From: Halobacillus massiliensis
GTDB lineage: Bacteria > Bacillota > Bacilli > Bacillales > Halobacillaceae
Direction of reading: 5' to 3'
Assembly: GCF_900166625.1 (NCBI RefSeq)
Contig: NZ_LT800499.1
Location: forward strand, 2,211,731 to 2,275,730
DNA length: 64,000 nt
Below the pieces are notes generated by a model. It was not told the origin of the DNA. It searched no databases and saw nothing but the letters and a program-made list of their open reading frames with translations. Positions 33,832 to 38,537 of this stretch are shown in pieces; the first letter of the stretch is position 1, and each line of letters opens with the position of its first letter. The position numbers and the translations under genes are program-made.

Positions 33832-34350
33832 ATGAAAAAAATTGCGGTTATCGGATCGCCCGGCTCAGGAAAATCTACTTTAGCAAGAATGCTTGGAGAA
33901 ATTTTGAAGATTGAAGTCGTACATATGGATCGTTTGTTTTGGAACCCTGGATGGTTACAGTGTACCCAGGAAGAGCTGCAGGCTAAACAAGATTTTTATT
34001 TGAAAATGGGCAGCTGGATTATCGAAGGGAATTACAGCAAGATTTGGAATGAAAGGCTGGCCCAGGCAGATACTATCATTATGATTGATCTTAACCGTTA
34101 TACGTGTGTTTATCGTGTGATTAAACGCTTTATAAAGAATTATGGCCGTACAAGGTTTGATTTGGGAGAAGACTGTATAGAAAAGCTTGATAAAGAATTT
34201 TTACGTTATGTCTGGCAGTTTTCCAAGAAGAAGAGAACAAAGTTGTTAAACGCTCAAATAAAGCACTGCTCTCATGCGCAAATCGTTATTCTGCCAAACA
34301 GGAAATCTGTAGAGAAGTTTGCAAACCAATTAATTCGACTTCAAACTTAG
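33832..34350 (+). CDS. P-loop kinase-like protein (FlaR/topology-modulation type)
   Basis: A 172-residue protein with Walker A GSPGSGKSTLA at residues 7-17, MDRLFWNPGW and WIIEGNYSKIW typical of the adenylate-kinase-like topology-modulation (FlaR) group, and a basic helical C-terminus. The start is the ATG of MKKIAVIG after AGGTGG. The TAG stop lies inside the first copy of the terminus repeat core. The substrate is unknown. Confidence 0.87.
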   Translation: MKKIAVIGSPGSGKSTLARMLGEILKIEVVHMDRLFWNPGWLQCTQEELQAKQDFYLKMGSWIIEGNYSKIWNERLAQADTIIMIDLNRYTCVYRVIKRFIKNYGRTRFDLGEDCIEKLDKEFLRYVWQFSKKKRTKLLNAQIKHCSHAQIVILPNRKSVEKFANQLIRLQT

Positions 34351-34379
34351 TAGTAACTCCAAATTCAAATAAAAAAACA
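34339..34379 (+). repeat. Terminus repeat copy 1 (Ter-like), + orientation
   Basis: CTTCAAACT, then core TAGTAGTAACTCC at 34348-34360 (12 of 13 to the consensus), then an A-rich tail. It overlaps the stop codon of the P-loop kinase gene and lies about 110 bases upstream of the Rtp-like gene. Confidence 0.8.
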
Positions 34380-34467
34380 TAAATCAAGCGAACAAATGTG
34401 CTTATTGTTAGACAAAACCTCTGGTTTATATTGTAAAATAGAAGAAAAGCCAGAGGGAGAGGATACG

Positions 34468-34848
34468 ATGTCTCACAAAAATAATCCGAAAAAATTTGCT
34501 CTAAATATGAGTGCGGCTCAATTCACTAAATTTTATGTTATGCACCTGCTTCAGGTAAGTGAGCCTTTAATAAGTGAACATTTTAAAGCTGAATTCAGAA
34601 AGCTTACAACGAACTGGATTCCGGCACCCTCCACATTACTTGATACCCTTCATGAAATGACAGAAGAAGGACTGCTCTACCGAAAAGAAGATTATAAATC
34701 CCATGAAAAAAGACGGCAGAAGGTATATTGGTATTACTTGACTGATCAAGGTAAAGAAGAATTCGATGTACTAAAGAAAAAGTATAAGATTTTATTTGAA
34801 GAACAGCAAGCTATTTTGTCTCAGATTATGAGAGAAGTCTACAAATAA
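34468..34848 (+). CDS. Rtp/PadR-like winged-helix DNA-binding protein, candidate replication terminator
   Basis: A 126-residue protein: a winged helix (about 15-85: FTKFYVMHLLQ..., AEFRKLTTNWIPAPSTLLDTLHEMTEEGLL, RRQKVYWYYLT) and then one long charged C-terminal helix suited to dimerisation. From memory this is the layout of B. subtilis Rtp (122 residues), with matching points at EFK/R, P, the LHE-x3-DG/EGLL turn and Q-x-V-x-x-Y. It lies 3 kb from dif and just downstream of terminus repeat copy 1, as rtp lies beside its own Ter sites. The alternative is a PadR-type regulator. The start is ATG 34468 after GGGAGAGG. Confidence 0.7.
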   Translation: MSHKNNPKKFALNMSAAQFTKFYVMHLLQVSEPLISEHFKAEFRKLTTNWIPAPSTLLDTLHEMTEEGLLYRKEDYKSHEKRRQKVYWYYLTDQGKEEFDVLKKKYKILFEEQQAILSQIMREVYK

Positions 34849-34866
34849 GAGAGGGTTTTCATTAAA

Positions 34867-35874
34867 GTGAAATTAAGTGTACTTGATCAAAGCCCGATAT
34901 CAAAAGGAAGCACGGCCGAGCTAGCCTTAAGAAACACACTTGAGCTGGCACAGTTTACAGAAAGGCTCGGATTTCACCGTTACTGGGTGGCTGAGCATCA
35001 TAATACAAATGGATTAGCAAGCAGTTCTCCTGAGCTTTTAATCGCAAGGATAGCCTCCGTTACGACACGTATCAAAGTCGGTTCAGGAGGGGTGCTACTG
35101 CCGCAGTACAGTCCGCTTAAAGTCGCCGAAAACTTTAAAATGCTGGAGGCTATGTTCCCTGGACGAATTGATTTAGGTCTTGGACGTTCACCAGGCGGAG
35201 GAAAAAGAACGCGAGCTGCCTTAACAGACGGCTGTAATAAACCGCTGAGCTCTTTTTCCCGCCAGGTTAAAGAAGTTAAACAGTTTTTGACAGGAAGTAT
35301 TCCTAAAGAACATGATTATTTTGGTGTAGCTGCTAAACCTGAGACACCTGCAAATCCAGATGTTTGGATTCTAGGTTTAACGGAAAGAGGAGCACGTCAT
35401 GCCGCCATTAACTCTACTGGATTTACGTTTGGTCATTTTATCAACCCTGAGTATGCGGAAGATGCACTAACAGCTTATCGCGAAAAGTTTAAACCTTCGG
35501 ATGGGTTAAAAAAACCCCTTGTTAACGTTTGTATTTTCATCGTTTGTGGAGAAACTGATGAAGCAGCAGAAGAATTGGCCATAAGCCAGGATATGTGGCT
35601 TCTTCAGGCAGCCAAAGGACTGGATACAAGAGTTCTATCCGTTGAAGAAGTAAAAGAGCGAGGGTTTACTGATGAACAGCTTACAGAAGTTAAGAAAAAC
35701 AGAAAAAGGTGCCTGATTGGCAGTCCGGCTACAGTATATAAAGGGCTAAAAGAATTAGAGGAAAAGTATGGAACAGATGAGTTTCTCGTAATAACAAATA
35801 TTTATTCACATGAAGAAAAACTTACTTCCTATCAGCTGCTTGCAAACTATGTAAAAGAGCAGGAAAGTAAATAA
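34867..35874 (+). CDS. LLM-class flavin-dependent oxidoreductase
   Basis: A 335-residue bacterial-luciferase-like monooxygenase: LDQSPISKGSTAELALRNTLELAQ, RYWVAEHHN, SSPELLIARIA, VGSGGVLLPQYSPLKVAE and PGRIDLGLGRSPG are the conserved FMN-site segments of the YtmO/YwcH-like group. The substrate is unknown. The start is GTG 34867, 18 bases after the Rtp-like gene stop, so the two are probably co-transcribed. Confidence 0.93.
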   Translation: MKLSVLDQSPISKGSTAELALRNTLELAQFTERLGFHRYWVAEHHNTNGLASSSPELLIARIASVTTRIKVGSGGVLLPQYSPLKVAENFKMLEAMFPGRIDLGLGRSPGGGKRTRAALTDGCNKPLSSFSRQVKEVKQFLTGSIPKEHDYFGVAAKPETPANPDVWILGLTERGARHAAINSTGFTFGHFINPEYAEDALTAYREKFKPSDGLKKPLVNVCIFIVCGETDEAAEELAISQDMWLLQAAKGLDTRVLSVEEVKERGFTDEQLTEVKKNRKRCLIGSPATVYKGLKELEEKYGTDEFLVITNIYSHEEKLTSYQLLANYVKEQESK

Positions 35875-35893
35875 TTAAGAAAGTTGGAGATTA

Positions 35894-37875: not shown

Positions 37876-37952
37876 CATGATTACAATTTAAATTATGTCT
37901 CATTTACTAAGTATACTTATGATAGTGAGACATAATTAATTTTAATCCATGA
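37875..37952. repeat. Imperfect palindrome of about 78 bp abutting dif
   Basis: Centred on AAGTATACTT (37909-37918). Perfect 12-bp arms AATTATGTCTCA (37891-37902) and TGAGACATAATT (37926-37937) lie inside outer arms TCATGATTA and TAATCCATGA. It starts at the last base of dif. It could bind a dimeric protein or form a cruciform; no gene ends here that would need a terminator. Confidence 0.8.
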
Positions 37953-38100
37953 TTTTTTAAATGCCTTAACTTTATCTCATTTAATTACTTCTATAATTAT
38001 TTATAAATCTTAACTATGCTATTCAATTTTTATCAAGTATATTTTTTCAACTATACTCCTGTCCTTTCATTTTTAATTTGTAATAGGACTTTTTGCATTT

Positions 38101-38149
38101 TATTGTTTTGTTTTTATGTTATCAGTTGGAGTTGCTACTATCTATTAAG
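38101..38149 (-). repeat. Terminus repeat copy 3 (Ter-like), - orientation
   Basis: The core is GGAGTTGCTACTA on the + strand at 38128-38140, 13 of 13 to the consensus in reverse orientation, with a T-rich (A-rich in repeat sense) tail to its left and TCTATTAAG on the right. It is 253 bases right of dif. Confidence 0.82.
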
Positions 38150-38290
38150 TGCGATTATAAATTTAATTTGTCGCCAATAGGATCATTTTTAAAATATTAA
38201 TTGCGAATTTTCTTTCCAGCCAGTTTTCTCCACAAATTTGCACATTTAGTATTATCCTTAGTCCTATTATCCTAAGAACATTTACAATTT

Positions 38291-38336
38291 ATTGGTTTTT
38301 TTATTATTTAATACGGAGTTGCTACTATGTATTAAG
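38291..38336 (-). repeat. Terminus repeat copy 4 (Ter-like), - orientation
   Basis: Core at 38315-38327, 13 of 13. The + strand continues ACTATGTATTAAG, which matches the B. subtilis Ter B-site core ACTATGTACTAA (recalled) at 11 of 12 positions. It is 187 bases from copy 3. Confidence 0.83.
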
Positions 38337-38490
38337 CGCAATTATATTGGCATCATAGCTCCACTATTCTTCTATGTAGTCTAAACACCACTATTGGCAG
38401 CCTGGTTTATTTTCTTCCTTGCTGATCCGGCTTTTCTCGTGTATTTCTTTCACCAGCTGCTTAAAAGGCTTGTTTCTCTCGCCTGACTGT

Positions 38491-38537
38491 TGCTTTTTTT
38501 TTATTTTATAAGTTCGGAGTTGCTACTAAGTTTAAAG
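38491..38537 (-). repeat. Terminus repeat copy 5 (Ter-like), - orientation
   Basis: Core at 38516-38528, 13 of 13, followed by AGTTTAAAG as in copies 1 and 2, with a run of T (A in repeat sense) on the left. It is 201 bases from copy 4 and 37 bases from the 3' end of sqdX. Confidence 0.83.

What the first reader, a model, noticed from the sequence alone, without database searches (positions are those of the whole stretch)
34339..38537. Five Ter-like repeats in two opposed clusters around dif: a candidate replication fork trap
A 13-base core TAGTAGCAACTCC occurs at 34348, 36779 (both +) and at 38128, 38315, 38516 (all -). Four copies are identical and one differs by one base. Similarity extends to a CTT-x-AA start and an A-rich tail, about 40-45 bp in all. 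Every copy left of dif points one way and every copy right of it the other, so a fork from either side meets the first cluster in one orientation and the second in the reverse, the layout of a polar fork trap. Copy 4 continues as ACTATGTATTAA, close to the B. subtilis Ter B-site core as recalled. RTP/Ter traps are thought to be confined to the B. subtilis group, so a trap with its own Ter sequence would be new. The repeats are seen; the function is inferred.
Basis: partly seen in the sequence, partly recalled or inferred. Interest (0 to 1): 0.92.

Follow-up and report, generated by a model that had tools for sequence, protein, structure and literature searches.

The report
RTP-like replication fork trap around dif
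Salt-loving bacteria related to Bacillus appear to carry their own set of one-way road signs around the place where chromosome copying ends, probably read by a distant cousin of the known B. subtilis stop protein; the layout is strongly supported, the stopping itself is not yet tested.

Summary
Observation confirmed. Five copies of a ~45 bp element with core TAGTAGYAACTCC sit around dif (37848-37875), two on +, three on -. Elsewhere in the genome only two one-mismatch cores occur. The exact core recurs in 25 of 25 sampled genomes of the window's family, and the element in Pontibacillus, Jeotgalibacillus and Sutcliffiella, with a diverged copy in Robertmurraya. Within 100 kb of dif, 130 of 130 placeable copies point toward it (67; 63). 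It is found in 28 of 29 further genomes with the Rtp-like protein, 0 of 15 without and 0 of 8 with canonical RTP. The protein (34468-34848) passes Pfam's RTP cut-off, is modelled with the RTP/PadR fold, and its gene has a copy just upstream in most lineages. Best reading: a polar fork trap that works like RTP/Ter, with a divergent terminator protein and its own Ter sequence. Binding and arrest are untested. Two side claims fail: the B-site resemblance is not significant and points the wrong way, and RTP is not confined to the B. subtilis group.

The parts
34332..34377 (+). Ter-like site 1 (core 34348-34360, one mismatch), upstream of the Rtp-like gene and overlapping the 3' end of the preceding ORF
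36763..36808 (+). Ter-like site 2 (core 36779-36791), in the gap between convergent genes, just after a stop codon
37848..37875 (-). dif (chromosome dimer resolution site)
   Evidence: cumulative GC-skew maximum 37929 and AT-skew maximum 37837
38111..38156 (-). Ter-like site 3 (core 38128-38140), the least typical of the five
38298..38343 (-). Ter-like site 4 (core 38315-38327)
38499..38544 (-). Ter-like site 5 (core 38516-38528)
34468..34848 (+). Rtp-like (RtpL) winged-helix protein, 126 aa, the proposed terminator protein
   Evidence: Pfam RTP PF02334 36.0 bits, cut-off 26.7; profile match to RTP; model and fold match
34389..34402 (+). CGAAC-box between site 1 and RtpL, resembling a LexA box (two mismatches to a recalled consensus); lead only

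Best explanation
A polar replication fork trap. RtpL, a divergent relative of the B. subtilis replication terminator protein, binds the ~45 bp asymmetric element (a new Ter sequence). Forks entering the terminus from oriC meet the first cluster on its permissive side and pass; a fork that reaches the second cluster before meeting its partner meets the non-permissive side and stalls, so forks fuse in the ~1.3 kb between sites 2 and 3, where dif lies. RtpL probably controls its own gene through the site next to its promoter. Shown: sites, orientation, restriction to the terminus, conservation, co-occurrence with RtpL, RTP-type profile match and predicted fold. Inferred: binding, arrest, which face blocks (the opposite polarity would stop both forks before dif), autoregulation.
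For: Core restricted to the terminus in the own genome. 78 exact cores in 25 of 25 family genomes against 9 for the backward control; extended motif 78 places in 24 of 25 genomes, control 0. All copies placeable within 100 kb of dif point toward it: 67 of 67 and 63 of 63 in 29 further genomes; of 8 genomes where no dif was found, 7 show one + to - switch on the main contig. Motif in 28 of 29 further RtpL genomes, 0 of 15 without an over-cut-off hit, 0 of 8 with canonical RTP. Orientation follows dif, not the gene: in f36 (Pontibacillus) rtpL reads away from dif in the 5 genomes where both lie on one contig, and its upstream site is flipped relative to the gene yet still points to dif. A core (up to 2 mismatches) lies upstream of rtpL in 23 of 24 family relatives, and a site (up to 3 mismatches) in 8 of 8 f36 and 2 of 2 f24 upstream regions shown and on plasmid pB218, and in both Robertmurraya loci and Sutcliffiella. 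RtpL over the Pfam RTP cut-off; hhalign to RTP E 5e-11 over 118 columns; Foldseek rank 2 is the RTP/B-site DNA complex 1f4k, TM 0.72. GC-skew switch at dif between the clusters, also at dif in Sutcliffiella and one Jeotgalibacillus-like genome, and inside the trap in one f36 genome.
Against: No binding or arrest data. RtpL also matches PadR regulators (26.9 bits, cut-off 27.0; Foldseek rank 1 is a putative transcriptional regulator and most of the 50 listed hits are PadR-type), and neither the single sequence nor its profile finds an RTP entry among PDB sequences while both find a PadR (E 0.29; 0.0074). RtpL lacks the Tyr-Gly motif (residues 33-34) of RTP at the aligned place, which PMC3506622 says is crucial for DNA binding (passages read). 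No significant Ter similarity and no dyad detected, though the same test detects none in f12 Ter either. Jeotgalibacillus has no site next to rtpL (0 of 10 upstream regions shown), and one of 12 f39 genomes lacks the motif altogether (G074; J. soli). On two plasmids the opposed pair is not at the GC-skew switch. A skew switch at dif does not by itself prove a trap. One far copy points away from dif (G006). 64 of the 130 places and 9 of the 78 could not be placed against a dif.
Confidence: 0.8

Rival explanations
1. The sites are polar landmarks for terminus organisation or segregation (a factor that guides a translocase, unloads SMC or marks the terminus) rather than fork barriers; RtpL binds them but does not stop replisomes.
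For: Orientation toward dif and terminus restriction fit; the skew switch lies at dif itself rather than at a trap edge even in wide traps; RtpL lacks the RTP Tyr-Gly motif.
Against: Only 1 to 11 exact copies in the genomes that have any, whereas KOPS/SRS-type guides are short and abundant (recalled). The partner protein belongs to the RTP/PadR superfamily and scores over the RTP cut-off. Opposed pairs occur on two plasmids; no dif was seen in the stretches L242 and L243 searched there, the rest of the plasmids was not searched for dif.
Confidence: 0.12
2. RtpL is an ordinary PadR-like transcription regulator and the sites are its operators.
For: Annotated as PadR on the two plasmids; PadR match just below cut-off; a site near the rtpL promoter.
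Against: Of 28 sites not upstream of rtpL, 6 lie within 250 bp 5' of an ORF; 9 are in convergent gaps, 11 elsewhere between genes, 1 inside an ORF, 1 at an edge (mechanical ORFs, counted by hand from its list). A regulon does not predict orientation toward dif in 130 of 130 copies.
Confidence: 0.05
3. The repeats are remnants of duplication or a mobile element in this one terminus.
For: Sites 3 to 5 lie in a ~1.15 kb gap without an ORF of 60 aa or more, of low G+C.
Against: Same motif and polarity in genera with different gene neighbours; only ~45 bp is shared.
Confidence: 0.01

Closest known systems
RTP/Ter replication fork trap of Bacillus subtilis
   Same: PF02334 protein with winged helix and long C-terminal helix; asymmetric sites in two opposed groups around dif; a site next to the terminator gene in most lineages; an A-rich tail on the dif-facing side, as in f12 Ter.
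   Different: Ter sequence unrelated by test; RtpL is 19% identical to B. subtilis-type RTP in the profile alignment, has a different recognition helix and no Tyr-Gly motif; of the window's neighbouring genes only a distant cvfB match was seen in one of 11 canonical-RTP loci examined.
Tus/Ter fork trap of Escherichia coli
   Same: Layout and presumed role; relatives of the terminator protein on plasmids (for Tus see PMC6549158 passages).
   Different: Tus is unrelated to RTP and has another Ter consensus (PMC10331603 and PMC3317982 passages).
PadR-family winged-helix regulators
   Same: Fold and weak sequence match.
   Different: Full-length profile match is stronger to RTP (E 5e-11, 118 columns) than to the three PadR relatives tested (8.5e-6, 90 columns); most sites not upstream of rtpL are not promoter-linked.
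Plasmid-borne RTP of pBtic235 (B. thuringiensis israelensis)
   Same: RTP relative on a large plasmid-like element, reported at 48% identity to RTP (PMC8116677 passage).
   Different: The plasmids found here carry RtpL, not RTP, with a pair of the new sites.

Membership tests
RTP (PF02334) protein family | Score over the curated Pfam cut-off | tested here: met
   36.0 bits against 26.7; all 25 family genomes have a match over the cut-off
RTP (PF02334) protein family | Winged helix with one long C-terminal dimerisation helix | tested here: met
   pLDDT 82.5, three helices, two strands, helix 93-125; 1f4k rank 2, TM 0.72; PadR shares this fold; dimerisation itself not tested
RTP (PF02334) protein family | Tyr33-Gly34 DNA-backbone contact | tested here: not met
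   absent in RtpL at the aligned position; role from PMC3506622 passages
RTP (PF02334) protein family | Closer to RTP than to PadR by descent | tested here: inconclusive
   profile scores favour RTP, but only three PadR sequences, no tree, no synteny, and PDB sequence searches find PadR, not RTP
RTP/Ter fork trap | B. subtilis Ter consensus KMACTAANWNNWCTATGTACYAAATNTTC (PMC3317982) | tested here: not met
   B half: 0 hits in the window at up to 3 mismatches; no motif similarity to f12 Ter
RTP/Ter fork trap | Polar sites in two opposed groups flanking dif | tested here: met
   130 of 130 placeable copies within 100 kb point toward dif
RTP/Ter fork trap | A Ter site at the terminator gene's promoter | tested here: met
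   a site upstream of rtpL in the window's family, f36 and f24; not met in Jeotgalibacillus, 0 of 10; in the window's own family the site is ~120 bp before the start codon, overlap with a promoter not shown
RTP/Ter fork trap | Two overlapping half-sites, each bound by a dimer | tested here: inconclusive
   no dyad detected in RtpL sites or in f12 Ter
RTP/Ter fork trap | Site-specific binding and polar fork arrest | not testable with these tools
   needs bench work
Tus/Ter fork trap | The terminator protein is Tus | tested here: not met
   RtpL's five Pfam matches do not include Tus; the rest of the genome was not searched for Tus

The most novel reading that the evidence does not exclude
A second lineage of RTP-type fork trap exists: a divergent terminator protein with an unrelated Ter sequence serves Halobacillus, Salimicrobium, Thalassobacillus, Pontibacillus, most Jeotgalibacillus, Sutcliffiella and probably Robertmurraya chromosomes, also travels on large plasmids, and either replaced classical RTP in some lineages (one Jeotgalibacillus-like genome keeps a fragment that looks like classical RTP) or arose separately from a PadR regulator, a third origin of polar fork arrest.
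Probability: 0.45. Interest if true: 0.85.

Novelty: new variant of a known kind. Interest (0 to 1): 0.75.

Why it matters
Fork traps are described as rare: Tus in some Gammaproteobacteria and RTP in a subgroup of Bacillales (PMC6549158 passages), and why cells keep them is open. A trap with a different protein and a different Ter sequence, kept across several genera with strict polarity, would be further evidence of selection for trapping forks at dif. It also gives a second protein-DNA pair for asking how an RTP-fold protein could stop a replisome from one side only, since RtpL lacks a contact thought crucial in RTP.

Tried and rejected
B. subtilis B-site resemblance: the motif comparison (43 family sites, 22 f12 sites) gave no significance in either orientation, the B half is absent from the window at up to 3 mismatches, and f12 Ter is absent too; copy 4's string is not the consensus of 108 sites. 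Rejected as evidence of kinship or polarity.

Dyad symmetry as a sign of half-sites: nothing significant, and the positive control failed as well, so uninformative.

Protein tree of RtpL, RTP and PadR: not built, because only one PadR subfamily was at hand. One search was mis-spaced by me and says nothing. Fold search 'pdb_via' was not available.

Papers: no paper holds 'replication termination', RTP and Halobacillus together; the core letters were found in one paper only, on oat markers; searches list fork-trap and PadR papers (listed: 25 of 40, 15 of 15, 20 of 33, 7 of 7, 15 of 120, 7 of 7), none of whose titles or abstract starts reports these sites. Of six papers I saw term-found passages only; Griffiths 1998 was not held. 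Subscription papers are mostly not held, so earlier mention cannot be excluded.
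Full report
WHAT IS THERE. The five cores exist as described: 34348 (+, one mismatch), 36779 (+), 38128, 38315, 38516 (-). None of 100 dinucleotide shuffles of the window reaches five hits at up to two mismatches. dif is at 37848-37875 on the minus strand. The window lies at C2:2211731-2275730 of a 4.31 Mb genome; with up to one mismatch the core occurs there only at these five places plus two strays at 3.47 and 3.96 Mb, while the backward control gives six. 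dnaA is at C2 33956-35344 (locus L191; named by me from its sequence and neighbours), so the antipode is near 2184 kb and dif (2249.6 kb) is about 66 kb from it, 1.5% of the chromosome (my arithmetic). The cumulative GC skew of the window peaks at 37929 and the AT skew at 37837: the replichore switch is at dif, between sites 2 and 3.

HOW FAR IT IS CONSERVED. Every genome searched in the window's GTDB family (the own one and 24 relatives) has the core exactly (25 of 25; 78 places; backward control 9). With the extended motif at up to three mismatches there are 78 places in 24 of 25 genomes and none for the control. dif was found in 24 of the 25. Of the 78 exact cores, 67 lie within 100 kb of dif on its contig and all 67 point toward dif; two lie far away (one toward, one away), seven are on other contigs, two are in the genome without a dif found. 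22 of 24 genomes with dif have exact or extended-motif sites on both sides within 150 kb; the other two are G009, whose left site has a variant core, and G021, where the sites are scattered over small contigs. In 29 further genomes with an Rtp-like protein (6 of the family, 9 f36, 12 f39, 2 f24) a 15-base pattern gives 130 places in 28 genomes; 63 are placeable within 100 kb and all 63 point toward dif, three lie further off and also point toward it, 43 are in genomes without a dif found and 21 on other contigs. Seven of the eight genomes without a dif show a single + to - switch on the main contig; G168 is scattered over small contigs. The same pattern is absent from all 15 sampled genomes without an over-cut-off PF02334 hit (three of them have weaker, PadR-like hits) and from all 8 sampled genomes with canonical RTP. 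The named collection gives 50 RtpL loci in Halobacillus, Salimicrobium, Thalassobacillus, Pontibacillus, Jeotgalibacillus, Robertmurraya and Sutcliffiella. That f1, f36 and f39 correspond to Halobacillus and kin, Pontibacillus and Jeotgalibacillus is my reading from equal contig lengths and places, not a label that the tool gave; f24 remains unnamed. A weight matrix finds one diverged site (12.6 bits; best of 10 shuffles 0.9 and -3.0) just upstream of rtpL in both Robertmurraya loci, 39.5 bits in Sutcliffiella (shuffles 5.6), and nothing within 10 kb of rtpL in Jeotgalibacillus soli.

THE ELEMENT. In 41 rows, one of them probably a chance match, it reads A-N-T-Y-T-N-N-CTT-N-A-W-ACT-TAGTAGYAACTCC-GAA, about nine variable bases, then an A-tract. 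Of 55 sites classed against mechanical ORFs, 2 lie inside an ORF. Counting by hand from that list, 27 are the site upstream of rtpL; of the other 28, 6 are within 250 bp 5' of an ORF, 9 in convergent gaps, 11 elsewhere between genes, 1 inside an ORF and 1 at an edge. This does not look like a regulon.

THE PROTEIN. ORF 34468-34848 matches Pfam RTP with 36.0 bits (cut-off 26.7) and PadR with 26.9 (cut-off 27.0); all 17 aligned proteins match both at E 0.01. Profile comparison gives E 5e-11 over 118 columns to canonical RTP, 8.5e-6 over 90 columns to three PadR relatives, and 3.4e-7 over 60 columns between RTP and those PadRs. Searches of PDB sequences found a PadR at 0.29 (single sequence) and 0.0074 (profile) and no RTP. 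The AlphaFold model (mean pLDDT 82.5) has three helices, a two-stranded wing and a 33-residue C-terminal helix; Foldseek ranks a putative regulator (3elk) first and the RTP/B-site DNA complex 1f4k second with TM 0.72. RtpL lacks the Tyr-Gly motif of RTP at the aligned place. So it is an RTP/PadR superfamily member closest to RTP by profile scores; whether by common descent or by a separate recruitment from PadR is open.

LINK BETWEEN PROTEIN AND SITES. Co-occurrence is near complete. A core with up to 2 mismatches lies 110 to 252 bp before the start of the RtpL match in 23 of 24 family relatives, each time on the gene's strand, and 120 bp before the start codon in the window. In f36 the gene reads away from dif in the five genomes where both were on one contig; there the site upstream of rtpL is inverted relative to the gene (8 of 8 upstream regions shown, up to 3 mismatches) but still points to dif. 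In f24 (2 of 2) and on plasmid pB218 it also overlaps the apparent promoter (the promoter is my reading of the sequence). Jeotgalibacillus has none there (0 of 10 shown). Orientation therefore follows dif, not the gene.

POLARITY. In five f12 genomes with canonical RTP and a dif found, the B-site pattern gives 17 places and all 17 read toward dif. The pattern was loose: over six genomes it gave 21 places against 20 for the backward control, but the places share longer flanks, which chance would not give. This puts the B side toward dif, as the papers require for arrest (PMC13220808 and PMC10331603, passages). The new sites cannot be aligned to these with significance, so their polarity cannot be read from sequence. 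It is inferred: barriers that blocked inward-moving forks would stop both before dif.

WIDER TERMINI. In Sutcliffiella two sites converge on dif (2488564) with the skew maximum at 2488645; in one Jeotgalibacillus-like genome (G346) dif is at 1725813 and the skew maximum at 1725940; in one f36 genome (G071) the skew maximum at 2099255 lies between the innermost sites at 2071848 (+) and 2150673 (-), with no dif found. The skew switch sits at dif rather than at trap edges where dif is known, so it marks the terminus but does not prove trapping.

PLASMIDS. RtpL relatives occur on Metabacillus pB218 (67.5% identity) and on a Cytobacillus oceanisediminis plasmid (50.4%), annotated as PadR; two Paenibacillus plasmids have weak matches near 27%. 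A weight matrix from 108 chromosomal sites finds two clear hits on each of the first two, 40.6 and 32.6 bits and 27.0 and 14.3 bits, against maxima of at most 3.6 and 2.0 in five shuffles each; the two hits are on opposite strands and one lies just upstream of the plasmid's rtpL. On a circle two opposed sites always converge on one arc, so that is weak evidence, and neither pair lies at the plasmid's GC-skew switch. No phage record matched.

COMPARISON AND NOVELTY. It works like RTP/Ter by layout, but it fails the classical Ter consensus and one RTP residue test, so I do not file it as a classical RTP/Ter system; I call it a new variant. The statement that RTP is confined to the B. subtilis group is not right in these data: PF02334 is over cut-off in 118 of 397 genomes sampled from the order; canonical-strength hits (E below 1e-29) fall in twelve of the tool's families and weaker ones in f1, f24, f36 and f39. 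[quoted passage not shown] No paper on these sites was found in the searches named under Tried and rejected; papers were read as passages found by term, none in full.

Noticed in passing
window 34389-34402; similar boxes upstream of rtpL in relatives: A CGAAC-N4-GTxC box between the Ter-like site and rtpL resembles a LexA (SOS) box with 1 to 2 mismatches to a recalled consensus in many, not all, relatives; Jeotgalibacillus has CGAACATATGATCG-like boxes. rtpL could respond to DNA damage.
   Followed up: partly
L268 (G142:C35:291500-293700): A 68-codon open frame resembling the C-terminal half of canonical RTP (1.4e-13) in an f39 (Jeotgalibacillus-like) genome that also has RtpL: perhaps a remnant of a replaced RTP.
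   Followed up: partly
L242, L243 (plasmids NZ_CP088246.1, NZ_CP062791.1): Plasmid-borne RtpL with an opposed pair of the new sites, annotated PadR.
   Followed up: yes
G110:C15:13539-13862 and G059:C11:92506-92820: Second RtpL-like matches over the cut-off in two genomes.
   Followed up: no
G041, G043, G045, G047, G052: Genomes with canonical RTP of a family (f12) other than f43, which holds the B. subtilis-type RTP, carry CTATGTTCTAAATAATC-like sites that read toward dif: 17 of 17.
   Followed up: partly
G071, G110, G168, G284, G294, G334, G355, G394; G008: No dif at up to 3 mismatches in 8 of 29 RtpL genomes and in G008; in G013, G314 and G375 dif begins ACTCAG instead of ACTTCC.
   Followed up: no
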